DNA of 64,000 nt from Limnochordaceae bacterium (GTDB lineage: Bacteria > Bacillota > Limnochordia > Limnochordales > Geochordaceae): contig JADBKR010000004.1 in NCBI GenBank assembly GCA_014896295.1, positions 124,001-188,000 of the forward strand, written 5' to 3'. Of this stretch, positions 34,848 to 52,516 are shown piece after piece. Position numbers and translations under genes: made by a program. Each line of letters begins with the position of its first letter. Position 1 is the stretch's first letter. The notes under the pieces were generated by a model, which was not told the origin of the DNA, ran no database searches, and worked only from the letters and a program-made list of their open reading frames with translations.

Positions 34848-35132
34848 ATGGACGCCACCAACGCATGGGCCAGACCCAGGTTGGCCCGTAGAGTTCGCTT
34901 GCGCTGGGACAGCGTGCGCCGTCGTCACGTGCTCTTGATGCCCGAGAAGGTCATCGTCCTCAACGAAACGGCCGCCGCTGTCCTTGCCTGCTGCGACGGC
35001 AGCCGTACCACCCGCGACCTCATCGCCGAGTTGAAGCAGCGCTACCCGAGCGCTGAAGTGGGCGACGACGTCATGGCTTTCCTCCAGGAGGCGACAAAGA
35101 GAGGGTGGGTGGAATGGGTGCTGCCGGGGTGA
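34848..35132 (+). CDS. pqqD: PQQ peptide chaperone PqqD
   Basis: 94-aa peptide-binding protein that delivers PqqA to the radical SAM enzyme PqqE. The conserved order RPRLARRVRLRWDSVRRRHVLLMPEKVIVLNETAAAVL, then a DLIAELKQRYP helix and the final wing, is the RRE/PqqD fold. Length is typical. Its stop overlaps the pqqE start (TGATG), and the two are sometimes fused in other bacteria. Confidence 0.93.
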   Translation: MDATNAWARPRLARRVRLRWDSVRRRHVLLMPEKVIVLNETAAAVLACCDGSRTTRDLIAELKQRYPSAEVGDDVMAFLQEATKRGWVEWVLPG

Positions 35133-36295
35133 TGGCGGGCGCTCGGACGCCCCGCCCTGTTGCCCCGCCGATGGCCATGCTGGCCGAACTCACCCACCGG
35201 TGCCCGCTGCAGTGCGTTTACTGCTCCAACCCCGTCCAACTCGTCGCTCGCTCCGCGGAGCTGGACACCCATGCGTGGGCCCGCATCTTTCGCCAGGCGG
35301 CTCGGCTCGGCGTGCTCCAGCTGCACCTATCCGGCGGTGAGCCGCTCTTGCGCCGTGACCTGGCCGAGCTCGTGCGGGTGGCTTCGGAAGAAGGACTGTA
35401 CACCAATCTCATCACCAGCGGAGTGGGCCTGTCCCAACGCAGGGTGGAGGAGCTCAAGGATGCCGGGTTGGGCGCGGTTCAGCTGAGCTTTCAGGCGGCC
35501 GACCCGTCCCTTGCCCGGGAGATTGCGGGTGGCGAGTTTTGGGAGGAGAAGGTAGCTGCCGCCACGCTCATTCGAGAGGCGGGCATCCCCTTGTCCCTCA
35601 ACGTGGTGCTCCATCGCCACAACCTCGGCCAGGTCCGGGAGCTCATGGAGATGGCGGCCGCGCTCGGAGCCGAGCGCCTGGAGCTCGCCAATACGCAGTT
35701 CTACGGGTGGGCGCTTGCCAACCGCGCCTTCCTGATGCCGGACCGGGCTGCCCTGGAGAGCGCCGAGAGAGAGGTGGCCGCCTTTCGCGCCCGGGGCAGC
35801 TCCCTCGAGATCCTTTGGGTCATCCCCGACTACCACGAGGGCCGCCCCAAGCCGTGCATGGGCGGCTGGGGGCGCCTCCAGCTCACGGTGGCCCCCGACG
35901 GGCGGGCGCTGCCGTGCCCGGTGGCCTACGTCCTGCCCGGCCTGGACCCACCGCTTGCCACCGAGGCGGCGCTGGACTGGATCTGGTACGAGTCCCCGGC
36001 GTTCCAGAGATTTCGTGGGTTTGACTGGATGCAGGAGCCGTGCCGGAGCTGTGCACGCCGGTTCGAGGATTTCGGCGGCTGCCGCTGCCAGGCGTTTCTG
36101 CTCACGGGCGATCCTGAGGCGACGGATCCGGCCTGCGCCCTATCCCCACACCACGAGCGAGTCGTCGCGGCAACCAGCCCGCTCAGGGGTCTCGACGCTG
36201 CATCCCCGCGACCCTCGCCGGCCAGCAGCCCCCGCCCGGCGAAGCCTCTTTACCGCACGTATCCGGGCCCCCGCGAGGCGGGCGTTTCCTCATGA
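35132..36295 (+). CDS. pqqE: PqqA cross-linking radical SAM enzyme PqqE
   Basis: 387 aa. It forms the Glu-Tyr C-C bond in PqqA. The radical SAM CxxxCxxC is in THRCPLQCVYCSNP near residue 25, followed by HLSGGEPLLRRDL. The C-terminal SPASM domain has the auxiliary cluster cysteines in KPCMGGWG, LPCPVAY, EPCRSCARRFEDFGGCRCQAF and DPACAL. The start is the ATG overlapping the pqqD stop, since an upstream GTG at 35105 lies within pqqD. The last 45 residues are a Pro/Ser-rich tail. The stop overlaps the pqqB start. Confidence 0.95.
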   Translation: MAGARTPRPVAPPMAMLAELTHRCPLQCVYCSNPVQLVARSAELDTHAWARIFRQAARLGVLQLHLSGGEPLLRRDLAELVRVASEEGLYTNLITSGVGLSQRRVEELKDAGLGAVQLSFQAADPSLAREIAGGEFWEEKVAAATLIREAGIPLSLNVVLHRHNLGQVRELMEMAAALGAERLELANTQFYGWALANRAFLMPDRAALESAEREVAAFRARGSSLEILWVIPDYHEGRPKPCMGGWGRLQLTVAPDGRALPCPVAYVLPGLDPPLATEAALDWIWYESPAFQRFRGFDWMQEPCRSCARRFEDFGGCRCQAFLLTGDPEATDPACALSPHHERVVAATSPLRGLDAASPRPSPASSPRPAKPLYRTYPGPREAGVSS

Positions 36296-37215
36296 GGATC
36301 CGGGTGCTCGGCACGGCCGCGGGCGGCGGTCTCCCCCAGTGGAACTGCAACTGCGCCAACTGCCGCCGTGCTCGGGCCGCCGGCCCGTCCGGCCGCCGTC
36401 TCCAATCCTCGCTGGCCGTCTCTCCCGATGGCGCAGCGTGGTACCTGATCAACGCAACGCCGGACGTCCGCGAGCAGATGGCGAATTTCCGGGCGCTGGC
36501 GCCGGGGCCTGGCATCCGGGAGACCCCGCTTCGCGGCGTCCTGCTGACCGACGCCGAACTCGACCATACCCTCGGGCTGCTGAACCTGCGAGAAAACGCT
36601 CGTTGGACGCTGTGGGCCACTCCTGCCGTCCTGCACGTGCTCGAGAGCGTCTATCCGGTGCTTCCCATCCTGCGCGCTTACTCCTCAGAGCTGCAGGTGA
36701 GGGCCATGCCGGTGGACAGGGCGTTCATGCTCCCGCCTGAGCGTGCACCGGGCGCGAGCGTCCGGGTGCTCGCGCACGGAGGTCTCTCGGCGACTGCCCA
36801 TCTACGCGCAAGCCTTGTCCGGCGCGCCTGCGCCGGGAGCGGTCGTCGCCTTCACGTTGACCAACCCGACTACCGGCCGACGGCTGGTCTACGCTCCAGG
36901 GCTGCGCCGGCTCGAGGCCCCCTCCGAGCACAGCTCGAACAGGCCGACGTCGTGCTGCTGGACGGCACGCTCTGGGACGAGGACGAACTCGTCCGCCTCG
37001 GCGTCGCCCACCGCACCGCGGCCGACATGGATCATGCCCCGATGAACGGCAGCCACGGTACGGCCCGGTGGTTCGGCGAATTGTCTGCGCGGTGGAAGCT
37101 TTACGTTCACGTCAACAACACCAACCCGGCCCTGGATCCCTCGTCGCCGGAGCGGCGAAGGCTCCGGGAGGCCGGGCTGGACATCGCCGAAGACGGTTGG
37201 GAGGTCGAACTATGA
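36292..37215 (+). CDS. pqqB: PQQ biosynthesis protein PqqB (segment in the wrong frame)
   Basis: Metallo-beta-lactamase-fold protein of 307 residues. The start MRIRVLGTAAGGGLPQWNCNC, INATPDVREQM, LTDAELDHTLGLLNLRE and the end DMDHAPMNGSHG through YVHVNNTNP are canonical PqqB. Between about 36780 and 36920, however, the open frame reads as noise, while the neighbouring frame gives the expected middle (RRLPIYAQALSGAPAPGAVV and then FTLTNPTTGRRLVYAPGLRRLE). Two compensating one-base indels therefore flank this segment, the second beside a C-run near 36918. As read, about 50 residues would be replaced. Start and stop overlap pqqE and pqqC. Confidence 0.88.
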   Translation: MRIRVLGTAAGGGLPQWNCNCANCRRARAAGPSGRRLQSSLAVSPDGAAWYLINATPDVREQMANFRALAPGPGIRETPLRGVLLTDAELDHTLGLLNLRENARWTLWATPAVLHVLESVYPVLPILRAYSSELQVRAMPVDRAFMLPPERAPGASVRVLAHGGLSATAHLRASLVRRACAGSGRRLHVDQPDYRPTAGLRSRAAPARGPLRAQLEQADVVLLDGTLWDEDELVRLGVAHRTAADMDHAPMNGSHGTARWFGELSARWKLYVHVNNTNPALDPSSPERRRLREAGLDIAEDGWEVEL

Positions 37216-37916
37216 GCCAGCCATGGCCGGCCGCGGAGTTCGAGGCGAGGCTGCGGGCCGTCGGGGAACGGCGCTATCACCACCTGCATCCGTTCAACCA
37301 GAGGATGCACGCCGGGCAGCTCTCCCCCAACGACATGCGCTTGTGGATAGCCAACCGGTTCTACTACCAGAAGAACGTGCCCGTCAAAGACGGGATCCTG
37401 CTGTCCAAGCTCCCGACCCGGGAAGACCGCAGGCTCTGGCTGCAGCGCATCATCGATCAGGATGGACGGGAGGGCAACGAGGGCGGCTTGGAGCTGTGGG
37501 TCATGATGGGCGAGGCGGCAGGGCTGGAGCGGGACGACCTCTGGTCGGACCGTTTCCTGCTGCCGGGGGTACGGTTCGCGGTGGACGCTTACGTCACCTT
37601 CGTGCGGGAGCGACCGTGGCTCGAGGGCGTGGCGGCCTCCCTCACCGAGCTCTTTGCGCCCGGCATCCACGAGGCGCGGCTCGAGGCCTTCCGGCGCCAC
37701 TACCCGTGGATCCGGCCCGAGGGGTACCGGTACTCCGAGAGCCGGCTCAGCCAGGCGCGGCGGGACGTGCAGCACGGGCTGTCGCTGGTACTGCAGCACG
37801 CCCGCACCCGCGAGGACCAGGAACGGTGCGTGGCGGCCCTGGAGTTCAAGTGCGACGTGCTGTGGTCGCTGCTCGACGCCGTGCAACTGGCCTGCGAGCA
37901 GCGCCGGGCTGCGTGA
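37212..37916 (+). CDS. pqqC: Pyrroloquinoline-quinone synthase PqqC
   Basis: 234-aa cofactor-free oxidase that performs the final ring closure and oxidation to PQQ. The TENA/heme-oxygenase-like fold is recognised from RRYHHLHPFNQRMHAGQLSPNDMRLWIANRFYYQKNVPVKDG, WLQRIIDQDG, FAPGIHEARLEAFRRHYPWI and the closing helix. Catalytic His residues in YHHLHPF and the RFYYQ segment are present. The ATG overlaps the pqqB stop (ATGA). It is the last gene of the operon; no pqqF-like protease and no PQQ-dependent dehydrogenase lie in the window. Confidence 0.95.
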   Translation: MSQPWPAAEFEARLRAVGERRYHHLHPFNQRMHAGQLSPNDMRLWIANRFYYQKNVPVKDGILLSKLPTREDRRLWLQRIIDQDGREGNEGGLELWVMMGEAAGLERDDLWSDRFLLPGVRFAVDAYVTFVRERPWLEGVAASLTELFAPGIHEARLEAFRRHYPWIRPEGYRYSESRLSQARRDVQHGLSLVLQHARTREDQERCVAALEFKCDVLWSLLDAVQLACEQRRAA

Positions 37917-40634: not shown

Positions 40635-41074
40635 CCGCTCTTCCGGATACCCGTCCCATCCTACCCCCGAAAACCCCGGGACGAGCTTACCGTACCATCG
40701 GGCAGCGGTCGAGCAACAGGGGGCACCCCCTGGTTCGACCCGGGGGTCATCCCCTGGCTGCCCCCGGGCGCACCCTCGCGCCGGTGGGGGCTGCCCTCCC
40801 CTGCAACGAGGGACGTCACCCTGGTTGCCCCGTGCGCACGGTTGTTATGCTGGGTACCGCATCGAGCCGGCGGAAGGCCCGCCCCGTGGTCGCGACGGCG
40901 GCCCCTCGCACCGGGCGGGACGCCTGCGAACAGGCGTGCGTTGATCTCATGGCCATCGTCCTTGGGATCAGCCGGGTGGTCCTCCGTCCAATTGCTCGCA
41001 TGCTGGCACCGTTCGTACACTCTCCACGGTAAGCAAGCCGCATCATGGTGCGGCGGGCGGGAGGCTGTGAAAAC
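40635..41074. other. GC-rich intergenic region with repeated G/C runs
   Basis: About 440 bases without a convincing gene. Between about 40710 and 40800 runs of five G alternate with runs of five C, giving several mutually exclusive hairpins. It may be a structured leader or a terminator pair between the divergent genes. The reading frames here are shadows. Confidence 0.4.
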
Positions 41075-42052
41075 TTGGGGCGTTACGGTCCGGCGCGGCG
41101 CCACTTGATGGCCGTCGTTCTTGGAGTGGGACTCGCCTCGGCATCGGTCGCCGCGGCACACGCCACCGCTCCGATCACGGTGGACTACCAGCTCGACTCG
41201 CCGACGCCCGGAGCGAGCCGCAACGACGATGGCGTCTGGGTCGTACCGGCCGGCCAGCGCATCGAGTGGACCGTCACCTGGACCCTCTACAACCGCTCGG
41301 GGCAGTCGTTGAACGACGTCGGCGCGGTCAACCACTACTCGGCCGAGATCGACGTCGACCCCCGCTCGGTGGTCGCATCCCGGGGCGAAGTGCTCGTGGA
41401 GCCCGTCGGCGGGCGCAGGAGCGCAACCGCCGTCGTTTGGGACGTGGGCACGATGCGTCCCGGGGAGACGGCGACGATGGTACTGAAGATTGCGACCGGA
41501 ACGAACCCGCGCGGCAAGCAGATGTACGGCGAACCGGGCAACTATGCCCTGGATTCGGGCCTGACCGTTCGGTGGCGAAAAGGCAGCCTCTCCCTCCCGT
41601 GCGTCGGGGTCAAGGCGGTGGCAAGAGGATGGCTCCGGGTCGAGGTGTCCGGGACCCGGATCGACTGGCGCATCCGAAAGCCGGGAGAGTATGCCGCCCT
41701 GGCTTTCCGGGCAATCGTCTCGAGCAACCAGGACGTGACGTTCTACTTCCGGGAGTTCGGGGAGCTCTTGCCGGCAGCTTCGTCCCGCGGGGACGCCCCT
41801 GGCATCCCGGTGTTCTATGCGATAGGCGATAGCCTCGACCAGGCCGCGAGCGCGGGATGGCTGGCCGCTGACCAGCTCAACGGCCTGCAGGTCCGGTTGG
41901 GCCGCTCCGAGGCCCTCGAGGAAGGGATCGCGTGGTCCTTGTGGCAGCGGCTGCGCATCGGCCCCGAGGTCGGGCCTGCGGCCTACGTGAACGAGGCGTC
42001 CGTGGTCTTCGTACCGGCCAACGTTCGCGAGTTCGTGGCCGACGGTTCATGA
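41075..42052 (+). CDS. Secreted protein with Ig-like N-terminal and DWRIRKPG C-terminal domain
   Basis: Exported protein of unknown function, about 325 aa. The TTG at 41075 behind GGGCGGGAGG gives a clean signal peptide ending AAAHA; an ATG at 41045 adds ten residues. Residues about 35-185 look like a beta-sandwich of the conserved-repeat/DUF11 type (PAGQRIEWTVTWTLYNRSGQSLNDV, VWDVGTMRPGETATMVLKI). Residues about 190-325 form a second domain with DWRIRKPGEYAALAFRAIVSSNQDVTFYF-type sequence and WSLWQRLRI, also found in the next gene. It starts a run of exported proteins leading to a secretin. I do not recognise the family. Confidence 0.75.
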   Translation: MGRYGPARRHLMAVVLGVGLASASVAAAHATAPITVDYQLDSPTPGASRNDDGVWVVPAGQRIEWTVTWTLYNRSGQSLNDVGAVNHYSAEIDVDPRSVVASRGEVLVEPVGGRRSATAVVWDVGTMRPGETATMVLKIATGTNPRGKQMYGEPGNYALDSGLTVRWRKGSLSLPCVGVKAVARGWLRVEVSGTRIDWRIRKPGEYAALAFRAIVSSNQDVTFYFREFGELLPAASSRGDAPGIPVFYAIGDSLDQAASAGWLAADQLNGLQVRLGRSEALEEGIAWSLWQRLRIGPEVGPAAYVNEASVVFVPANVREFVADGS

Positions 42053-42205
42053 AACACGGGCACCGCCCTGAGAGGGGGTGAGAGATGGCTCGATCCGGTT
42101 GAGGTCGTGTGAACTGGTCGTGTGCGTCGGATAGTTTCCATCGTCGTGTCCGTCTGTTCCGTCTGTATGATCGCCCGTCTGCCAGGAAAACGGAAGGAGA
42201 ACGGC

Positions 42206-42982
42206 ATGAAGAGGTTCAAGGCACTCTTTTTCGTGATGGTGACCGGCCTCGTGCTCGCGGCCGGCGCGGCCGCCTCGGCCCAGTACAATCCGAACGGCGA
42301 GGCGCTCCCGTCGGGCGCGAGGGAACAGGAAGTGTACTACTTCAACCCGGACAATCAGGCCTGGGAGTCCATCGGCTCGGGCAACGCAGACCAACTTGCC
42401 CGGAGCTGGAACTCGGGCCCGCTCCAGGGCAACTGCAACAAGGCGTACTGGGACATCACGTTCACGAGCCATGCGTCGGTCGCCCAGTGGATCAACTGGT
42501 CGCTGGCGACCAGCCGCAAGGACTGGCGGATCCGTAAGCCCGGGCAGTACGCCTCCGACTCCATCGACTTCACCATCGCGAGCAACAACGACGTGGTCGT
42601 GAGCTTCGACGGCTTCGGCGACCTGGAGTACCTCGGGCAGCGGGTCGAGGACCCGCAACTCCAATACACGATCCCCACGTACTTCGGCGTGGGCGCCAGC
42701 TTCGCCGAGGCCAACGCGAACGGCTGGGTACGGGCGGCTGACCTCAACGAGACGACCTATACCTTCCCCAACAGCGAAGACCTCCACCAGGGCTTCCAGC
42801 TCAAGTTCTGGCAGCGCCTGGACGTCCAGAAGTCCAACTCGTCGTCGGAGTACGAAAACGTGGGGACGGTGCGGCTGGCCGTCACCAACCTGAAGTTCTG
42901 GATCGATGGGCAGACCGGCCGCTACGCCCAGGATCAGTTCGGCACCCCGCCGACTGAGGAGTACGTCCCGTCGACCATCTGA
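42206..42982 (+). CDS. Secreted DWRIRKPG-domain protein
   Basis: Exported protein of 258 aa, ATG behind GGAAGGAG, with a clear signal peptide (residues 1-26, ending AAASAQ). The body is rich in Asn, Tyr, Trp and Asp, unlike the Ala/Arg-rich average of the window, as is common in extracellular structural proteins. DWRIRKPGQYASDSIDF, IASNNDVVVSF, ADLN and FWQRLDV align with the C-terminal domain of the previous gene product, so the two are paralogues. There is a single Cys (GNCNKAYWD). Function unknown; a secreted structural subunit or cargo is a reasonable guess. Confidence 0.78.
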   Translation: MKRFKALFFVMVTGLVLAAGAAASAQYNPNGEALPSGAREQEVYYFNPDNQAWESIGSGNADQLARSWNSGPLQGNCNKAYWDITFTSHASVAQWINWSLATSRKDWRIRKPGQYASDSIDFTIASNNDVVVSFDGFGDLEYLGQRVEDPQLQYTIPTYFGVGASFAEANANGWVRAADLNETTYTFPNSEDLHQGFQLKFWQRLDVQKSNSSSEYENVGTVRLAVTNLKFWIDGQTGRYAQDQFGTPPTEEYVPSTI

Positions 42983-43068
42983 GGCGCTGCGGCGGAGGGA
43001 GGGGGAGGGCAGGGTCCCTTCCCTTCCTCCTTCCAGGACAACCTCGAGCGTTCAAGGAGGCATCCGGT

Positions 43069-44763
43069 TTGAACCGTCCGCATCGCATCCCTCTCCAGAT
43101 GGCCGCCGGCCTCCTCGCCCTCCTGGTCTTTGGCCGGGTGGCTGGGGCGCAGCAGATCGGGTTCACGGTGAGCCCGCTCTTGCTCGAGCTGGAGGGGGCA
43201 CCAGGGAGCACGGCCCGGTTCGAGATCACGGTGGCCAACGAGAGTGGAAGCCGACCGGGCAACTTCACCGTGTCGGTGGCGCCCGTTCGCCAGGACCTCT
43301 CGGGCAACTACCGGGTCGACCCGACCAGCAAGAGCGACCGGTCGGCGGCGGAGTGGATCCGGGTGAGCCCGGACCGGTTCTCCCTGGAGCCCGGCAAGGG
43401 GCAAATCATCGCGGGGGAGCTCACGTTTCCCCGCCGGTTCCGAGGTGGAGCTTACGCGGCCGTGCTCGTCACGCTCCAGCCCGACGAGGGAGGCCCCCAA
43501 GACGCAGCACGCCAGGTGCTGCGAAACGAAGTGGCCGTCATCGTCGAGGCGGTGGCCATGACGCCCGGTGTGCGCCCCGATATCCACCTCGAACGCTTCA
43601 GCGTGCTGTCCGCCGCGCAGAAGGGCTTGGAGCAGTACGCCCGGCAGTTCGGTTCGCAGGCGCTCATCTTCATCGGGGACCTGGTCAACGAGGGTACCGT
43701 GCACGGGTTTGCGGCGGGGTCGATCAGCCTCTGGGACGAGGCAGGAAGGAAGATCAAGCAGATCCCCCTGGGTACGGGGCGGGGGGCCATCCTTCCCGGC
43801 GCTACCGTACGAATGGCGTCCATCCTGCCCAACGGGCTCCCGCCGGGCCATTACTCGCTGCAAGCGGTGGTGAACTACGGAGGGCTCCGGCCGGCCATCT
43901 TGCGCCAGAAGTTTACGGTGGGGTCCGAACTGCTCCAGGCCTCCCAGAGCGGGCGAGGCGTCCGTTTGGCCGTGGAGCCCGACGACGTGACGTTCGATCT
44001 CCTACCCGGGGCCTCTCGCTACGCGTCGGTGCGCATTCGTAACCTCGACAAGGTGCCGCTCGCGGTTAGCGCCCGGGTCCTGCCGCTGGTCTACGACGCC
44101 GGCGGCAATCCCAACACGGAGCCGGTCGCAACCCGGGATCCGGCGGCGCAGTGGGTGGAGCTCCGCCCCGACACCGTCACCATCGAGCCCGGGCAGGTAC
44201 GCAGCATCCAGGTGGGGGTGCGGACGCCGAAGGACGCCTCGCAAGGGGGTCACTACGCCCAGGTGCTGGTGACGGCCCGGCCGGCCCGGGAGCCGGGCCA
44301 GGACGCCGGAGAAACGCAGATCAACGTGCCGCTCCACGCCATGCTGGGTAAAGACCTCAAGGCCGCCGCCGAGCTGGCTCCTTTGAAGGTGGAGCCTTCT
44401 CCGGACGGGAGGTTCTGGCTGGTTTCGTCCGTCTTTCGCAATACTGGCCAGATCCACCTGACCCCCAGCGCCCAGGTGATCGTCGAGCTCAAGACCCTCC
44501 CGGAGACGGCGCCGGGCACCGAGTACGTCGGCGACCCGATCTGGGTCGAGTCGACCCGGCTGACGTTGCCTCCCGTCACGACGCCGGTATTGCCGGGGGG
44601 TGAGCGCAACCTGGGAGCGCTGCTCGAGATCCCTTCGCAGCCCGGCGAATATCGCATCCGGGCGGTGGTGCGCTACCCGGGCGGGCAAGCCCTGGCCCAG
44701 GAGGCCATGATGCGCGTCAGCCAGACCACCGCGTCCAAACAGCCAGCGGCGCAGGGCCGGTGA
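43069..44763 (+). CDS. Exported tandem Ig-like protein (PapD/DUF916-like halves)
   Basis: 564 aa from a TTG behind a perfect AAGGAGG. A signal peptide (ending VAGAQ) precedes two similar halves. The first has FTVSPLLLELEGAPGSTARFEITVANES and EWIRVSPDRFSLEPGKGQII; the second has LAVEPDDVTFDLLPGASRYASVRIRNLDK and QWVELRPDTVTIEPGQVRSIQVGV. Each half has an N-terminal PapD-like strand pattern ending in a YAQVLVT/YAAVLVT strand, then a further Ig-like module. The layout resembles periplasmic pilus chaperones or DUF916 surface proteins. It lies 39 bp before the secretin gene, so a role as chaperone or scaffold for the exported proteins is likely (inference). Confidence 0.75.
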   Translation: MNRPHRIPLQMAAGLLALLVFGRVAGAQQIGFTVSPLLLELEGAPGSTARFEITVANESGSRPGNFTVSVAPVRQDLSGNYRVDPTSKSDRSAAEWIRVSPDRFSLEPGKGQIIAGELTFPRRFRGGAYAAVLVTLQPDEGGPQDAARQVLRNEVAVIVEAVAMTPGVRPDIHLERFSVLSAAQKGLEQYARQFGSQALIFIGDLVNEGTVHGFAAGSISLWDEAGRKIKQIPLGTGRGAILPGATVRMASILPNGLPPGHYSLQAVVNYGGLRPAILRQKFTVGSELLQASQSGRGVRLAVEPDDVTFDLLPGASRYASVRIRNLDKVPLAVSARVLPLVYDAGGNPNTEPVATRDPAAQWVELRPDTVTIEPGQVRSIQVGVRTPKDASQGGHYAQVLVTARPAREPGQDAGETQINVPLHAMLGKDLKAAAELAPLKVEPSPDGRFWLVSSVFRNTGQIHLTPSAQVIVELKTLPETAPGTEYVGDPIWVESTRLTLPPVTTPVLPGGERNLGALLEIPSQPGEYRIRAVVRYPGGQALAQEAMMRVSQTTASKQPAAQGR

Positions 44764-44801
44764 GACACCAACGAGAGATGCAGGAAACGGTGGGGTAACC
44801 G

Positions 44802-46097
44802 ATGCAGTGCAGGCGCCTCGTGATCCTGGCCGTTGCGCTGGTGGTGGGGACCTCCGCAAGCGTGCAGGCCCAGGCCGCGCCCCCGAAGCAGGCCCCGGCG
44901 CAACAGCAGCCGGCGGCACAGAAGCAGCCTCCCGCCCCGAATCAAGACGCGGATGCATCCCCGGCGGAGCCGCTGGTCTCCAACGTCTTCGTCGAGACGT
45001 ACCTGACGCAGGCGTTGCAGGACATCGCCATGCAGGCGGGTGTCAACATCCTGGTGGACCCCGGCGCGCAGGGGTTCGTCACCCTGGAGCTCAAGGACGT
45101 ACCTCTGGAGAAGGCACTGGCCATGGTGCTGGCACCCAACGGGCTCACGTTCGTCAAGCTGGACGACCGCACGTACCTGATCGGCAAACCCGACCCGAAA
45201 AGCCCCATCTTCCACCAGCTCAGCCAGACCGAACGGGTCCGGCTCGGATACGTCACGGCCGATGAAGCGAAGCGCCTGCTCTCCGACTACTACACGCCTT
45301 ACGTGCGCTTCGACGCCGAGACCAACACCGCCGTGATCACCGCGGCGCCCGATCTGTTGAAGCGCATCCGGGAGGACCTCCAACGCATCGACCGGCCCGC
45401 CCCCCAGGTGCTGATCGATGCCGTCGTGTCGGAGGTGTCGGACGAGGCGCGCAGGCAACTGGGCCTCGACTGGGGTGTGACCTTCACGCCCGATGATGCC
45501 GGGCGGAATCGAAAGTACGAAGCAGGATTCAACATGTTGCAGCAAGGGGTGTTCAACGTCGCGCTGCAATTGCCTTACGAGTCGCTCATCGCCAACCTGC
45601 GCAAGATGGAGGACGCCGGCAAGGCCTCGATCCGTGCCAACCCCCGGCTCACCGTGCTCGACGGCCAGAGCGCGGAGATCTTCGTGGGCGAGGACCGTTA
45701 CTTCAAAATCGTCACGGGATCCGACGCCACCCCCTTCACCCGCCTGGAGGCCATCAACGTGGGCGTCACCCTCAACATCACCCCCAGGGTCGCGCCGGGC
45801 GGCTACGTGACGCTTGTCGTCAAGCCAACCGTCAGCGACGTCACCGGCCAGGTCGGCGACGATCTGCCGGTGGTGAGCCGGCGCCAGATCTCCACCACCG
45901 TGCGGGTCAAGGACGGAGAGACGCTGGCGCTCGGGGGCCTCGTGCAGGACAGCGAGCAGACGGTCACCTCCAAGGTGCCGCTGTTGGGTGACCTTCCCTT
46001 GCTCCGCTTCCTGTTCTCGTCGACGCGCACCCAGCGTGCCAAGTCGGAGGTCGTGGTGTTCATCACTCCTCACCTCCTCGAATCGCCCGGACCGTAG
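44802..46097 (+). CDS. Secretin-family outer-membrane channel protein
   Basis: 431 aa. Signal peptide (residues 1-25), a Gln/Pro/Ala-rich linker, then an STN-like domain (VETYLTQALQDIAMQAGVNILVD, LKDVPLEKALAMVLAPNGLTFVK), one N-domain with ADEAKRLLSDYYTPYVRFDAETNTAVIT, and the secretin core (ASIRANPRLTVLDGQSAEIFVG, LNITPRVAPGGYVTL). The end VPLLGDLPLLRFLFSST and VVVFITPHLL is diagnostic of GspD/PilQ-type secretins. It is shorter than PilQ and has no pilus or type II secretion genes around it. It requires an outer membrane and probably exports the neighbouring secreted proteins. Confidence 0.9.
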   Translation: MQCRRLVILAVALVVGTSASVQAQAAPPKQAPAQQQPAAQKQPPAPNQDADASPAEPLVSNVFVETYLTQALQDIAMQAGVNILVDPGAQGFVTLELKDVPLEKALAMVLAPNGLTFVKLDDRTYLIGKPDPKSPIFHQLSQTERVRLGYVTADEAKRLLSDYYTPYVRFDAETNTAVITAAPDLLKRIREDLQRIDRPAPQVLIDAVVSEVSDEARRQLGLDWGVTFTPDDAGRNRKYEAGFNMLQQGVFNVALQLPYESLIANLRKMEDAGKASIRANPRLTVLDGQSAEIFVGEDRYFKIVTGSDATPFTRLEAINVGVTLNITPRVAPGGYVTLVVKPTVSDVTGQVGDDLPVVSRRQISTTVRVKDGETLALGGLVQDSEQTVTSKVPLLGDLPLLRFLFSSTRTQRAKSEVVVFITPHLLESPGP

Positions 46098-46150
46098 CCC
46101 GCTCGACAGAAGTCAACAGGAACCATCCCGTACGAAAGGAAGCGTCTGAC

Positions 46151-47077
46151 GTGCGAGGCTCTACCAGGACCCTGGCGAGGCAGATATGCCGGGTAGTGGC
46201 TGCCGTTCTCCTGATGGCCGCGGGCGCCGGCCTGCGTTCCGTCGCCGTCCGGGCCGGCTCGACGGGAGGCGGCCTGCCGGATGACCCGGCCGCCCATGTC
46301 GCCCTGTTCGACGTCGCCGGGGCGTCGTCATCGGCTTCGGCCGTCCTGCTCAACCCTGCGGCGGCTGCGCAACTGGGGCGGCCTCTGGTGGCCGGGTGGG
46401 CGGTCGTGCCCTCCGCCGGCTCAGCGCCGGGGGACGCCCGGCCTCTTTATGCCGTAGCCCTGCTCGATCCGGGGACCGGGGGCCCGGGAGCCAGTCTATC
46501 CGGCGGGCTCACGGGCGTCTTCCGCCGGTCAGGCACGGATACGCCGGGCGACGGTGAGTTGCTCCGGCTCGCCTACACGGTGGCGGCCCGCATCGGCTCC
46601 GTCGCCCTCGGAGCCAGGGCCGGCTGGGAAAGGCGGCTCGCAGGCGCTGACCCCGAGCAGCAATGGACCGCCGACGTGGGCTTTCGCACCCAGCTCGGCG
46701 CCTGGCTGGCCGTGGGAGGCGCGATCGCCGGGATCCCGGTGGGAGCGAGCGACCTCGCCGCCAGGGCCCGGCGAGGAAGCGCCGGCCTCACCATCTCCTT
46801 CCCCGGACTCGCCGGAGGCCCCCTGGAGGGGAGCCTCCTGGCCCTCGGGTGGGACGATGCCAACCTCGAGTCCGGCGCCGGCACCACCCTGGTGGCCAGC
46901 GGGCGGCTGGCGGCCAACCGGATGGTGGCCCTGGACGCGGCGGCCGGATATGACCCGAGCACGAGACAGTTGGGTTACTGGGCAGTCGCACTGGCCGTGT
47001 TGCCGTCTCCTTTCGGTCTGGAAATCGGGTACTCCTCGAGCCGCTCCTATCGCCTGGGTATCGACTTTCAGCCGTGA
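46151..47077 (+). CDS. Exported protein, probable outer-membrane beta-barrel
   Basis: 308 aa from a GTG behind GAAAGGAAG. A signal peptide (residues about 12-35) is followed by DVAGASSSASAVLLNPAAAAQLGRPLVAG, like the N-terminal plug/strand of PorV/UPF0164-type barrel proteins. Many Gly/Ala-rich alternating strands follow. The last strand ends SYRLGIDFQP, with a penultimate-region aromatic as in barrel proteins. No named family is recognised with certainty. It follows the secretin gene and may be its outer-membrane partner. Confidence 0.6.
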   Translation: MRGSTRTLARQICRVVAAVLLMAAGAGLRSVAVRAGSTGGGLPDDPAAHVALFDVAGASSSASAVLLNPAAAAQLGRPLVAGWAVVPSAGSAPGDARPLYAVALLDPGTGGPGASLSGGLTGVFRRSGTDTPGDGELLRLAYTVAARIGSVALGARAGWERRLAGADPEQQWTADVGFRTQLGAWLAVGGAIAGIPVGASDLAARARRGSAGLTISFPGLAGGPLEGSLLALGWDDANLESGAGTTLVASGRLAANRMVALDAAAGYDPSTRQLGYWAVALAVLPSPFGLEIGYSSSRSYRLGIDFQP

Positions 47078-47125: not shown

Positions 47126-47865
47126 GTGACCGTTTTCGTAACGGAGACCTGGGCACAGCAGGGCAACGACGTAGGCCCGCTACCGGGCCATGAGGCGGAG
47201 CTCCACGAGCTGTGGTGGGCACACGAGGTCAAGACGATGCTGGCGGTGGTCCAGATGAGCCTGGCAGCCCTTCAGCGCAAGGCGCCGCCGGTGCGGGAGC
47301 TCGCGGCCCGAGAGATCGACACGGCGCAGGCCTCCATCCGCCGGGCCACGGCTCTCGTGGAAGGGGCCCTCGGCCGTCCCACTTTCCGCTTGATCGAAGG
47401 GGAACCGCTGCTCGTACCGGGCATGCTGCGCTCCGTGGCTTCCATGATACGCTCGGCAGCGGACGGGCGGGGCGAGTCGTCCGGGCCCGTGGAGGTCGTC
47501 GAACGCTATGACCCCTCGGTGCCCCTGATCTGGGGGATCGCCGGCTGCTCGAGGCGGCCTTCGTCAACCTCGCCATCAACAGCCTGCAGGCGATCGGAGC
47601 GGAGGGCGGGCGCATCGAGTTTTGCGTGGCCTCCACGCCGGCCGGCCTGGAGGTCTGCGTCCGCGACACCGGGCCGGGCTTTGCGCGACGCGGCCTGCCG
47701 GAGCTCGCCGACCCCGCGCTCCGGCAACTCGCCGGGTGCGGTGGGACGGGCCTGGGGCTGTCCATTGTCCGGGCGGCCGTGTACATCCACGGTGGCCGGC
47801 TTCACATCGGCGATATCGAGCCCCGCGGCGCAGAGGTCGGGATCGTGCTGCCGGTGTTCGGGTGA
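47126..47865 (+). CDS. Sensor histidine kinase without obvious sensor domain (frameshift near 47532)
   Basis: About 247 residues. A short N-terminus is followed by the H-box (WWAHEVKTMLAVVQMSL). After YDPSVPLIWG the frame breaks; the missing continuation DRRLLEAAFVNLAINSLQAIG is in another frame and contains the N-box. DTGPGFARRG (G1) and GGTGLGLSIV (G2) follow in that frame to a stop at 47865. Adding one G to the GGGGG run at 47530-47534 restores the frame. No membrane helix is present, so it is a cytoplasmic kinase. The LuxR-type regulator gene downstream is its likely partner. Confidence 0.82.
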
Positions 47866-47908
47866 CGGGCACGGTTCACAGGCATGCCCGACAGACAGGG
47901 GGAGTCGG

Positions 47909-48695: not shown

Positions 48696-50083
<1,388 letters not shown>

Positions 50084-50085
50084 GT

Positions 50086-51708
50086 TCAACCCCTCCCTCT
50101 CTCCTGAGCGATGCCGGCGTGAGTTTCCCGCAGGTAGGACAGGCCGGGGATCGTGAGGAACTCGACGAACTCCGGATCGAGCACCAGCCGGTCGAGCAGC
50201 TGGGCCGCCTCGTCGAGCCGCAACGGGCCACCGTCGCCGCCGTCCGCACCCGAGGCGGCAGGCGAGGAGCCGGCCTCGGCGCGCAGGCGTTGCAGCTGCT
50301 CCGCTCGCGCGGACCGGTAGAGGGCCCCGAAGTCCCGGTGGCGCACCCACTGCCACAGCTGAGACCGAGCGATCTCGGCCGTGGCGGTGTCTTCCATCAG
50401 GTGATGGATCGCCACCGCCCCCCGGCCGCTCAGCCATGCGGCCAGATAGCGCAGCGCCACGTCGATGTCGCCGGCGAGGCCCCCCTCGGTGATGGGCCCG
50501 TCAGGAATCGCGAGCAGCTCCTCCGGGCGCTCCGGAGCCGGGGACATCCGCTCGAGCTGGTTGGGCCCCGGGAAGGCCCGCTCGAAGACCTCCCGCACCA
50601 CCCCGACCAGCCCCGGGTGCGCGACCCACGCGCCGTCGTACCCCTCACCCGCCTCCCGCTCTTTGTCTGCCCGCACCTGGGCGAGCGCCCGCTCGTTGGC
50701 GTCGGGATCGTCCTTGCGCGGGATGTACGCCGACATCCCGCCGATGGCGTGGGCGCCGCGCCGGTGGCAGACGTGGACGAGCAGCTGCGACGCCGTGCGC
50801 AAGAACGGCGTGGACGGCACCGTCAGAAGCGCCCTGTCCGGCAGCACTCGGTCGGGACGGTGGGCAAAGGTCTTGATGAAGCTGAAGATGTAATCCCACC
50901 GCCCGAGGTTGAGCCCGGTGATCCGCTCCCGGAGCTCGTACAGGATCCCCTCCATCTCGAGCGCCGCCAGGACGTGCTCGATGAGCACGGTGGCCCGGAT
51001 GGAGCGGCTCGGCAGGCCCAGGCGCTGCTCGCTCCACTCGAACACCTCGTTCCACAGCCGGGCCTCCGCTGCGCCCTCGAGCTTGGGAAGGTAGAAGTAC
51101 GGGCCGCTGCCCCGTTGCAGGAGCTCCCGGGCGTTGTGGAAGGCGAACAGCCCGAAGTCGAACAGCGAGGCGGAAACGGGCCGGCCGTCCACCCACACCC
51201 CGGGCTCGTCGAGATGCCAACCCCTGGGCCGAACGCTCAAGACCGCCGGTTGGGAGCCGAGCCGGTACACCCGACCGTCGGGCGCGACGTAGCTCAACGT
51301 ACGGCGGACGGCCTGCCGGAGGTGGGCCTGCCCCTGCACCATGTTGGCCCACGTGGGGGCGTTGGCGTCCTCGAAATCGGCCATGAAGACCTGGGCTCCC
51401 GAGTTGAGGGCGTTGATGATCATCTTCGGGTCGGTCGGGCCCGTGATCTCGACGCGCCGGTCCACGAGGTCGGATGGGGGCGGCGCTACCTTCCACTCGC
51501 CCACCGGGCCCGCCCGAAGGTCGAGCCCTTTACCTTCGCGCACCTCTTCGAGCCGGTCGATGCGCCGACGGAGCAACTCCTGCCGTGCCTGCCCGAACGT
51601 CCTGGCCAGTGCCGCCACGAAAGCGAGGGCAGCCGGGGTGAGCACGCTCTCGGAGCCCGGTACGGGCGGTTCTCTGAGCTCCACGCCGTCCGGCACCTGG
51701 TAAGACAA
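50086..51708 (-). CDS. aceB: Malate synthase A
   Basis: Condenses glyoxylate and acetyl-CoA to malate, 540 aa, the usual length of malate synthase A. The TTG at 51708, nine bases after a perfect AAGGAGG, is the best start; the open frame runs further up without support. Family blocks: [102 protein letters not shown] and [10 protein letters not shown] with catalytic Arg and Asp positions present. With aceA it allows growth on acetate or fatty acids. Confidence 0.95.
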
Positions 51709-52075
51709 ACCACAGCGCCTCCTTCCTCGGGTACGGGAGCGTGAGGCCGGATCCAGCCGCAGACGGAGGCCGATGGTTTGCACGGAAGGCAGTGTGTATA
51801 CAGGGTGTGGGATCCACACTAGCGATTCGATCTCCGGGGCGCAAGCGAGATTTCGCTCCGGGAGAGACGAAGCTGGCCAGGAAGGCTCGCCAAAGCGCCG
51901 CCTAGCTCGCCCGGCCACACAGAGAGGCTTTTCGCAACCCAGGCCCGCCGACAAAACCTTTGATACCCCTTGCAGATACCTGGGGAAGTCTCCTAGGATA
52001 GACGTCAAAGGTTCGAAGCTTACCTTTGTGACAACGGTTGCTACCATGCCCCGGCCGTTGAAAGGGGGGAAATGG
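51709..52075. other. Divergent intergenic region upstream of aceB and the universal stress gene
   Basis: About 370 bases with no gene. It holds a TGTATACA palindrome, a GTGTGG-GAT-CCACAC inverted repeat and the SD sequences of both divergent genes. No RNA gene was recognised. Confidence 0.5.
51795..51819. promoter_or_regulatory. Palindromes TGTATACA and GTGTGG-N3-CCACAC upstream of aceB
   Basis: TGTATACA (51795-51802) is a perfect 8-bp palindrome of the type bound by GntR-family regulators. The second repeat (51805-51819) has perfect 6-bp arms. They lie about 90-110 bp before the aceB start on the minus strand and are candidate operators for the glyoxylate shunt. Confidence 0.3.
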
Positions 52076-52516
52076 GTGTTGCGGGTGCTCGTGGCGGTCG
52101 ACGGTTCCGAGGGCGCGCGCAAGGCGGTCGACGTCACGGCCCGGTTGCTCGAGGAGGTGGCCCGGCCGGACGTCATCCTGCTCCACGTCCTCCCCGGACA
52201 GCGGGGCCTGGAGTACCTCAGCTCGTCCCCCGAGCTCTGGGAACGCATCCAGGACCTGTCGGCCGAGGAAGAGGAGGAGGGCCGGCAGCTTCTCCAGCGC
52301 TACAAAGAGCGCCTCTCCGGACTGCCTTCCGCTCCCGAACTGCTCCTCCGGCGAGGGGACCCTGCCGAGACCATCCTCGCCACCGCCCAGGAACGCAAGG
52401 TCGACCTCATCGTCATGGGTGCCCGGGGCCTGGGCCCGGTCGCTCAACTCATCCTCGGCAGCGTCAGCCACAAGGTACTCCACCTGGCGAGCTGTCCCGT
52501 ACTCATCGCGCGGTGA
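52076..52516 (+). CDS. Universal stress protein, UspA family
   Basis: 146 aa from the GTG at 52076 behind AAAGGGGGG; this gives the canonical MLRVLVAVDGSEGARKAVD start. Upstream in-frame codons would add unrelated sequence. The ATP-binding signature G-x2-G-x9-G-S is present in MGARGLGPVAQLILGSVSHKV, so it is probably an ATP-binding Usp. The protein ends HLASCPVLIAR, typical of the family. The gene lies 58 bp before the MHS-family symporter gene, perhaps as a regulator of transport. Confidence 0.92.
   Translation: MLRVLVAVDGSEGARKAVDVTARLLEEVARPDVILLHVLPGQRGLEYLSSSPELWERIQDLSAEEEEEGRQLLQRYKERLSGLPSAPELLLRRGDPAETILATAQERKVDLIVMGARGLGPVAQLILGSVSHKVLHLASCPVLIAR

What the first reader, a model, noticed from the sequence alone, without database searches (positions are those of the whole stretch)
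41075..47077. Secretin locus without pilus or type II secretion machinery, next to exported paralogues and an Ig-like chaperone-like protein
Seen: two exported paralogues (41075-42052, 42206-42982), a 564-aa exported protein with two PapD/DUF916-like halves, a 431-aa secretin and a possible beta-barrel protein in consecutive same-strand genes, followed by a soluble histidine kinase and LuxR regulator. Known: secretins normally serve type II/III secretion, type IV pili or phage export, with ATPases and platform proteins. None is present here. Inference: a small secretin-dependent export or surface-assembly system in a diderm Firmicute, with the DWRIRKPG proteins as cargo or subunits, the Ig protein as periplasmic chaperone and the kinase/regulator as control.
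Basis: partly seen in the sequence, partly recalled or inferred. Interest (0 to 1): 0.75.

Follow-up and report, generated by a model that had tools for sequence, protein, structure and literature searches.

The report
Secretin plus chaperone surface-assembly gene cluster
In Gram-positive-related bacteria that carry an outer membrane, a conserved gene set pairs a dedicated outer-membrane pore with a doubled, pilus-type folding chaperone and pilus-like cargo proteins but no motor, which looks like an undescribed way of putting fibres or surface proteins on the cell.

Summary
The order P1-P2-P3-P4 (long exported protein, short exported protein, double Ig protein, secretin) recurs in about 30 loci across the class and phylum, usually followed by an outer-membrane-barrel-like gene. 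Full-length tandem P3 occurs in 39 of 398 phylum genomes; all 39 have a secretin (103/398 overall), within 5 kb of P3 at all 33 places measured. The P4 secretins form their own clade, apart from PilQ, Tad, GspD, HofQ and phage secretins. Eleven of 33 system genomes lack any T4P/T2SS platform protein, including two single-contig genomes; ushers are absent (0/73). AlphaFold2 models: P3 is two tandem WxLIP/PapD-type chaperone units (Z 13.9 to WxLIP, 13.2 to CsuC; profile match to WxLIP 94-96%); P2 resembles donor-strand pilins and TasA (CsuA/B Z 8.9, moderate). Best reading: a motor-less chaperone-secretin pathway that exports, and probably polymerises, donor-strand-complemented subunits. Conservation, the secretin clade and P3's fold are shown; transport through P4, strand exchange and fibre formation are inferred.

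The parts
41045..42052 (+). P1: long exported subunit; N-terminal Ig/DUF11-like region plus C-terminal DWRIRKPG (pilin-like) domain; candidate tip or large surface subunit. Start could be 41045, 41075 or 41108
   Evidence: ORF; C-terminal domain paralogous to P2; 5 of 18 family members hit DUF11 weakly
42206..42982 (+). P2: short exported subunit; N-terminal ~65-aa extension then one pilin/TasA-like beta-sandwich (residues 91-228)
   Evidence: AF2 pLDDT 79.7; Foldseek TasA 3.4e-4 and CS17/Csu pilins; Z 8.9 to CsuA/B, 8.4 to FimG
43069..44763 (+). P3: exported tandem WxLIP/PapD-type chaperone, two units of two Ig domains, no C-terminal TM helix
   Evidence: AF2 pLDDT 91.6; Z 13.9 WxLIP, 13.2 CsuC; halves homologous; hhalign to WxLIP 94-96%
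44802..46097 (+). P4: dedicated 431-aa secretin (STN/N0, Secretin_N/N1, Secretin)
   Evidence: Pfam; below all NCBIfam secretin cut-offs; own clade
46151..47077 (+). P5: exported protein of a variable fifth-gene family resembling PorV/FadL outer-membrane barrels
   Evidence: aligned family with DARxMGMG...NPA motif and, in many members, C-terminal F; weak single-member hits Porin_4 4e-7, FadL 0.098
47126..47866 (+). Histidine kinase, frameshifted here; neighbour, not conserved core
   Evidence: one-base deletion near 47535 versus L036
47909..48661 (+). LuxR-family response regulator; neighbour, not conserved core
   Evidence: Response_reg + GerE; absent beside most distant loci

Best explanation
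A chaperone-secretin pathway. P1 and P2 are exported by Sec. In the periplasm each incomplete pilin-like domain is held by a P3 unit, which works like PapD or WxLIP by completing the subunit's beta-sandwich. The dedicated secretin P4 takes the place of an usher as the outer-membrane exit, perhaps helped by the barrel-like protein P5. At the exit P2's N-terminal extension replaces the chaperone strand in the preceding subunit (donor-strand exchange), with P1 (extra N-terminal domain plus pilin-like domain) at the tip or as the large surface subunit. Folding energy, not an ATPase, drives the process. Shown: conserved operon, secretin clade, P3 fold (predicted) and homology to WxLIP, absence of usher, and independence from any T4P/T2SS platform. 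Moderately supported: the pilin-like fold of P2. Inferred: transport through P4, strand exchange, polymerisation, and the role of P5.
For: Synteny: P1-P2-P3-P4 recurs in loci of about 12 other class genomes and about 19 phylum genomes from several further families. Co-occurrence: 39/39 genomes with full-length tandem P3 have a secretin (103/398 overall; hypergeometric 2e-26, not corrected for relatedness), within 5 kb at all 33 places measured. System secretins form one side of a branch (SH-aLRT 99), apart from own PilQ, Tad, E. coli GspD/HofQ and phage pIV. 11/33 system genomes have no T2SSF, including single-contig G065 and G066; in G065 and G111 P4 is the only secretin. Usher 0/73. P3 model: WxLIP Z 13.9, CsuC Z 13.2 over 183 residues, then CfaA, FimC, Caf1M and others; hhalign to WxLIP 95.7/94.0% over 230 columns. 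P2 model: nearly all top 50 VIA rows are chaperone-usher pilins, and the alignment to FimGt, which lacks its donor strand, is nearly end to end. A second, diverged cluster type keeps P3 and P4 but carries several short subunits plus a two-domain one ending AGxYxGxIxVTV; as a profile they match P2 at 94.7%, P 6e-8. WxLIP is predicted in the literature to complete the WxL sandwich with an inserted strand (PMC10599100).
Against: No experiment and no complex model. P2's Z of 8.9 is only just above the 7-8 typical of models without a clear match, and there is no sequence-profile signal to E. coli pilins or WxL. P3 shows no profile signal to E. coli PapD-type chaperones. Secretins elsewhere work with ATPase-driven machines. 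Only one candidate polymerising subunit gene is present in the window's type.
Confidence: 0.58

Rival explanations
1. A diderm WxL-like cluster: P1 (large) and P2 (small) are not polymerised but displayed on the surface or bound to peptidoglycan as a complex stabilised by P3. The secretin only lets them, or part of the complex, through the outer membrane.
For: Gene logic small + large + WxLIP is that of WxL clusters (PMC10599100). P3 is closer to WxLIP than to PapD by sequence and slightly by structure. WxLIP in monoderms makes no known fibre.
Against: P1/P2 are not PF13731 WxL (0 hits in own genome and sampled class genomes) and P2 shows no profile match to WxL. P2 has a long N-terminal extension as expected of a polymerising subunit, and the second cluster type has several subunits like a fimbrial operon.
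Confidence: 0.25
2. A TasA-like extracellular matrix fibre: P2 assembles outside by itself, P3 is a TapA-like helper, and the secretin is just the exit.
For: TasA fibre is the first Foldseek hit (E 3.4e-4). TasA assembles by donor-strand exchange without an usher (PMC9674648), with TapA as strand-complementing chaperone (PMC10151520, title).
Against: No TasA/Peptidase_M73 family hit. The VIA ranking favours chaperone-usher pilins. P3 matches PapD/WxLIP-type proteins.
Confidence: 0.08
3. P4 is a spare or specialised secretin of a type IV pilus, Tad or type II machine encoded elsewhere, and P1-P3 are its adhesins or substrates.
For: Own genome has a T4P operon; a T4P operon converges on the system in G084 and Tad-like genes lie about 10 kb upstream in genus g90.
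Against: Those machines have their own secretins. 11/33 system genomes have no T2SSF platform at all. P4 is phylogenetically separate.
Confidence: 0.05
4. P4 and P3 form a static outer-membrane to cell-wall scaffold and do not export anything.
For: WxLIP is described as peptidoglycan-binding (PMC10599100).
Against: Linked to exported pilin-like proteins in nearly every locus; P4 keeps the full N0-N1-secretin architecture.
Confidence: 0.04

Closest known systems
Chaperone-usher pathway, archaic Csu type
   Same: Two-Ig L-shaped periplasmic chaperone fold (CsuC, Z 13.2); pilin-like subunit (CsuA/B, Z 8.9); two-domain large subunit; no motor
   Different: No usher (0/73 genomes); a secretin instead; chaperone duplicated in tandem; no detectable sequence-profile similarity to E. 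coli chaperones or pilins
WxL / WxLIP (DUF916-DUF3324) surface clusters of monoderm Bacillota
   Same: Small + large exported paralogues plus WxLIP homologue (profile 94-96%, Z 13.9)
   Different: P3 is doubled and lacks the TM helix; subunits are not PF13731; accompanied by a secretin and a barrel-like protein in outer-membrane-bearing cells
Secretins of T4P, T2SS, Tad and filamentous phage (PilQ, GspD, RcpA, pIV)
   Same: N0-N1-secretin architecture, about pIV length
   Different: Separate clade, below family cut-offs, no ATPase or platform protein
TasA/TapA biofilm fibres
   Same: P2 top Foldseek hit is the TasA fibre; donor-strand logic
   Different: No TasA family match; the system includes an outer-membrane pore and a PapD/WxLIP-type protein

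Membership tests
Type IV pilus / type II secretion / Tad | ATPase and platform protein accompany the secretin | tested here: not met
   PilB/PilT/PilC/PilM homologues absent from all fetched system loci but L095; T2SSF absent from 11/33 whole genomes
Type IV pilus / type II secretion / Tad | Secretin assigned to PilQ, GspD, MshL or another named family | tested here: not met
   GspD 201 vs cut-off 351, PilQ 189 vs 284, others lower; separate clade
Chaperone-usher pathway | Outer-membrane usher PF00577 | tested here: not met
   0 of 73 class genomes; positive control rings
Chaperone-usher pathway | Two-domain PapD-type chaperone fold | tested here: met
   Predicted P3 halves Z 11-13.2 to CsuC, CfaA, FimC, Caf1M
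Chaperone-usher pathway | PapD-family sequence profile | tested here: not met
   No Pfam PapD hit; hhalign to 7 E. coli chaperones under 2%
Chaperone-usher pathway | Incomplete pilin sandwich completed by donor strand | tested here: inconclusive
   P2 Z 8.9/8.4 and nearly end-to-end match to FimGt, but Z near background and no complex predicted
WxL/WxLIP cluster | WxLIP protein (DUF916 + DUF3324) | tested here: met
   hhalign 95.7/94.0% over both domains; Z 13.9; 2 members hit PF06030
WxL/WxLIP cluster | WxL domains PF13731 | tested here: not met
   No hit in P1/P2; 0 in own genome; hhalign 0.2-0.3% for P2
WxL/WxLIP cluster | C-terminal transmembrane helix of WxLIP | tested here: not met
   P3 model ends in strand plus disordered tail
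TasA family | Peptidase_M73/TasA profile | tested here: not met
   No Pfam hit at E 0.1 among 18 members

The most novel reading that the evidence does not exclude
A motor-less 'chaperone-secretin' pathway, in which a secretin rather than an usher exports donor-strand-complemented pilin-like subunits and assembles them into fibres, and in which WxLIP-type proteins are the link between monoderm WxL clusters and chaperone-usher pili.
Probability: 0.4. Interest if true: 0.92.

Novelty: categorically new. Interest (0 to 1): 0.8.

Why it matters
Secretins are known as exits of ATPase-powered machines, and chaperone-assisted donor-strand pili are known only with ushers. A conserved secretin family that travels with a tandem PapD/WxLIP chaperone and pilin-like subunits, in genomes with no motor, would be a new outer-membrane export or assembly principle. 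It would also tie together WxL surface clusters of monoderms, TasA fibres and chaperone-usher pili, which bears on how surface fibres changed when Bacillota lost or kept the outer membrane. It can be tested directly in cultured relatives or by reconstitution.

Tried and rejected
hhalign of P3 against seven E. coli PapD-type chaperones and of P2 against sixteen E. coli pilins gave nothing. P2 against WxL gave nothing. Pfam/NCBIfam gave no names for P1, P2, P5 or the second-type subunits beyond weak hits. PDB sequence searches with P2 and P3 profiles were empty. An outgroup search in another phylum was not possible with the tool, so distribution outside the searched phylum is unknown. WxL structures were not seen among the rows listed for P2, which tests nothing. 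Literature searches found no description of a secretin with a chaperone and no motor; the library lacks preprints and most subscription papers. Considered and dropped: 'P4 is phage pIV-like' (tree) and 'kinase/regulator are part of the system' (not conserved).

Full report
What is there. The window (contig C4 of a 2.89 Mb genome) holds five consecutive same-strand genes, P1 to P5, at 41045-47077. P4 carries STN, Secretin_N and Secretin domains. P1 and P2 share a domain with the motif DWRIRKPG; its coding pattern is found twice in the window and never in shuffles. P3 has no confident single-protein Pfam hit, but several family members hit fn3_5, NPCBM_assoc and, in two cases, WxLIP_PGBD. The genome is diderm by gene content: Omp85/BamA is present in it and in all 17 system genomes tested. 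Limnochordia, Negativicutes and Halanaerobiia are described as diderm Bacillota (PMC11448272). That this genome belongs to a Limnochordia-like lineage is my guess, not tested.

Is it conserved? Yes. A protein search with P2 finds it in 19 of 73 class genomes, and a second, weaker match (P1) lies next to it in most of them. Neighbourhoods show P1-P2-P3-P4 in the same order and strand wherever the contig is long enough. One locus (L039) lacks P3, with P2 and P4 truncated. In the wider phylum, 25 of 398 genomes have the P2 domain, and the 20 loci fetched show the same order apart from contig ends. Flanking genes differ: RecD2 helicase, transglutaminase, polysaccharide deacetylase, sigma-54 activators, BTAD regulators. 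The core is therefore P1-P4 plus, in most loci, a fifth gene of a variable family. That family aligns with an N-terminal DARxMGMG...NPA motif and often a C-terminal phenylalanine, as expected of outer-membrane barrels of the PorV/FadL kind (the resemblance is from memory). Library support for it is weak.

A second cluster type. Many remaining ~400-aa secretins of the class sit with a P3 homologue too, but with other subunits: several exported proteins of 160-220 residues, one two-domain protein of about 300, a ~440-aa protein with a barrel-like C-terminal part and often a BTAD regulator. The short proteins end in AGxYxGxIxVTV. As a profile they match the P2 domain at 94.7% (P 6e-8 over 125 columns), and the two-domain protein's C-terminus matches at 85%. 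This composition is like that of a fimbrial operon.

The secretin. P4 scores below every NCBIfam secretin cut-off (GspD 201 of 351, PilQ 189 of 284). In a tree of 75 secretins, the P4 proteins of both cluster types fall on one side of a branch with SH-aLRT 99. The genome's own PilQ, T4P and Tad secretins, E. coli GspD and HofQ, and two phage secretins lie on the other side (quick search, midpoint root, some long branches). The genome's T4P operon (pilB, pilT, pilC, pilM, pilN, secretin) is elsewhere. Of 33 system genomes, 11 have no T2SSF platform gene, including the single-contig G065 and G066. G065 and G111 have no secretin but P4. Only G084 has a T4P operon facing the system, and one genus has Tad-like genes about 10 kb away; in both, those machines have their own secretin.

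Co-occurrence. Full-length tandem P3 is found in 39 of 398 phylum genomes. All 39 have a secretin, against 103 of 398 overall. At the 33 places with coordinates the secretin domain is within 5 kb, mostly within 1 kb. Single-unit relatives of P3 occur more widely, in at least six genomes without a detected secretin. Relatedness of genomes is not corrected for in the probability of 2e-26.

What the proteins look like. P3 was predicted with pLDDT 91.6 and pTM 0.83 from 44 sequences: four Ig domains in two similar halves (profile comparison of the halves 99.9%). Each half matches two-domain L-shaped proteins. The best is WxLIP of Enterococcus faecium (Z 13.9, 231 residues), next to it the chaperone CsuC (Z 13.2, 183 residues, 4.3 A), then CfaA, FimC, Caf1M and others. 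By sequence profile both halves match WxLIP (95.7% and 94.0% over 230 columns), while E. coli chaperones give nothing. P2 was predicted with pLDDT 79.7. Its residues 91-228 match chaperone-usher pilins (CsuA/B Z 8.9, FimG Z 8.4) and TasA (Foldseek E 3.4e-4). Z 8.9 is not far above the background of 7-8, so this is moderate evidence. It gains weight because the neighbouring protein independently looks like the chaperone of such subunits.

Mechanism. In chaperone-usher pili the chaperone completes the pilin's sandwich with its own strand, and the next subunit's N-terminal extension replaces it (established knowledge). TasA fibres assemble by the same exchange (PMC9674648), with TapA as strand-complementing chaperone (PMC10151520, title). 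WxLIP is predicted to insert a strand that completes WxL (PMC10599100). P3 belongs to the WxLIP family by homology and P2 resembles the subunits, so the simplest reading is that P3 holds P1/P2 in the periplasm by strand complementation and hands them to the secretin P4, which takes the usher's place, with P5 as accessory outer-membrane protein. P2's ~65-residue N-terminal extension is the candidate donor strand; P1, with an extra N-terminal domain, is the candidate tip. No ushers were found in the class and no motor is linked, so the driving force would be folding. That P3 holds the subunits and everything after it is inference.

Rivals. The main alternative is a diderm version of a WxL surface complex that is exported but not polymerised; small + large + WxLIP is exactly the WxL gene logic. 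My data do not separate the two. Dependence on a T4P/T2SS machine is largely excluded by the genomes that lack one.

Novelty. I found no paper on a secretin system with a chaperone and without a motor. Parts belong to known superfamilies, but the combination fits no known system: usher, motor and WxL-domain criteria were each tested and not met. I therefore rate it categorically new, with the fibre step unproven.

Noticed in passing
window 47126-47866 (near 47535): Histidine kinase broken by a one-base deletion relative to the same-species genome (L036), in a G-run; assembly error or real.
   Followed up: yes
window 48696-50437, minus strand: An isocitrate-lyase-like gene appears split into two overlapping frames, while L036 has a 601-aa ORF in the corresponding place; next to a malate-synthase-like gene at 50086-52248. 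With the kinase this hints at assembly indels.
   Followed up: partly
window 35105-37916: Consecutive genes that look like PQQ biosynthesis (PqqE-, PqqB- and PqqC-like), read by eye only.
   Followed up: no
L109, L110, L111, L113, L114, L115, L118, L119, L123, L124: Second, diverged cluster type: P4-like secretin, P3-like protein, several pilin-like short exported proteins, a two-domain one and often a BTAD regulator with degenerate GGDEF.
   Followed up: partly
L097, L098: Tandem second copy P2-P3-P4' (shortened secretin) followed in both by two conserved genes, an S41-type peptidase and a ~447-aa protein.
   Followed up: no
L120, L121 (G066): Two further secretins (503-507 aa), each beside very large proteins (1,333-1,602 aa) of one family; not in the P4 clade, no T2SSF in this genome.
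   Followed up: no
phylum genomes such as G062, G092, G278, G342: Single-unit P3-like proteins occur in genomes without a detected secretin; possibly the undoubled ancestor-type chaperone.
   Followed up: no
L039 (G067): Locus with P3 deleted and P2/P4 truncated; draft genome, may be an assembly artefact.
   Followed up: no
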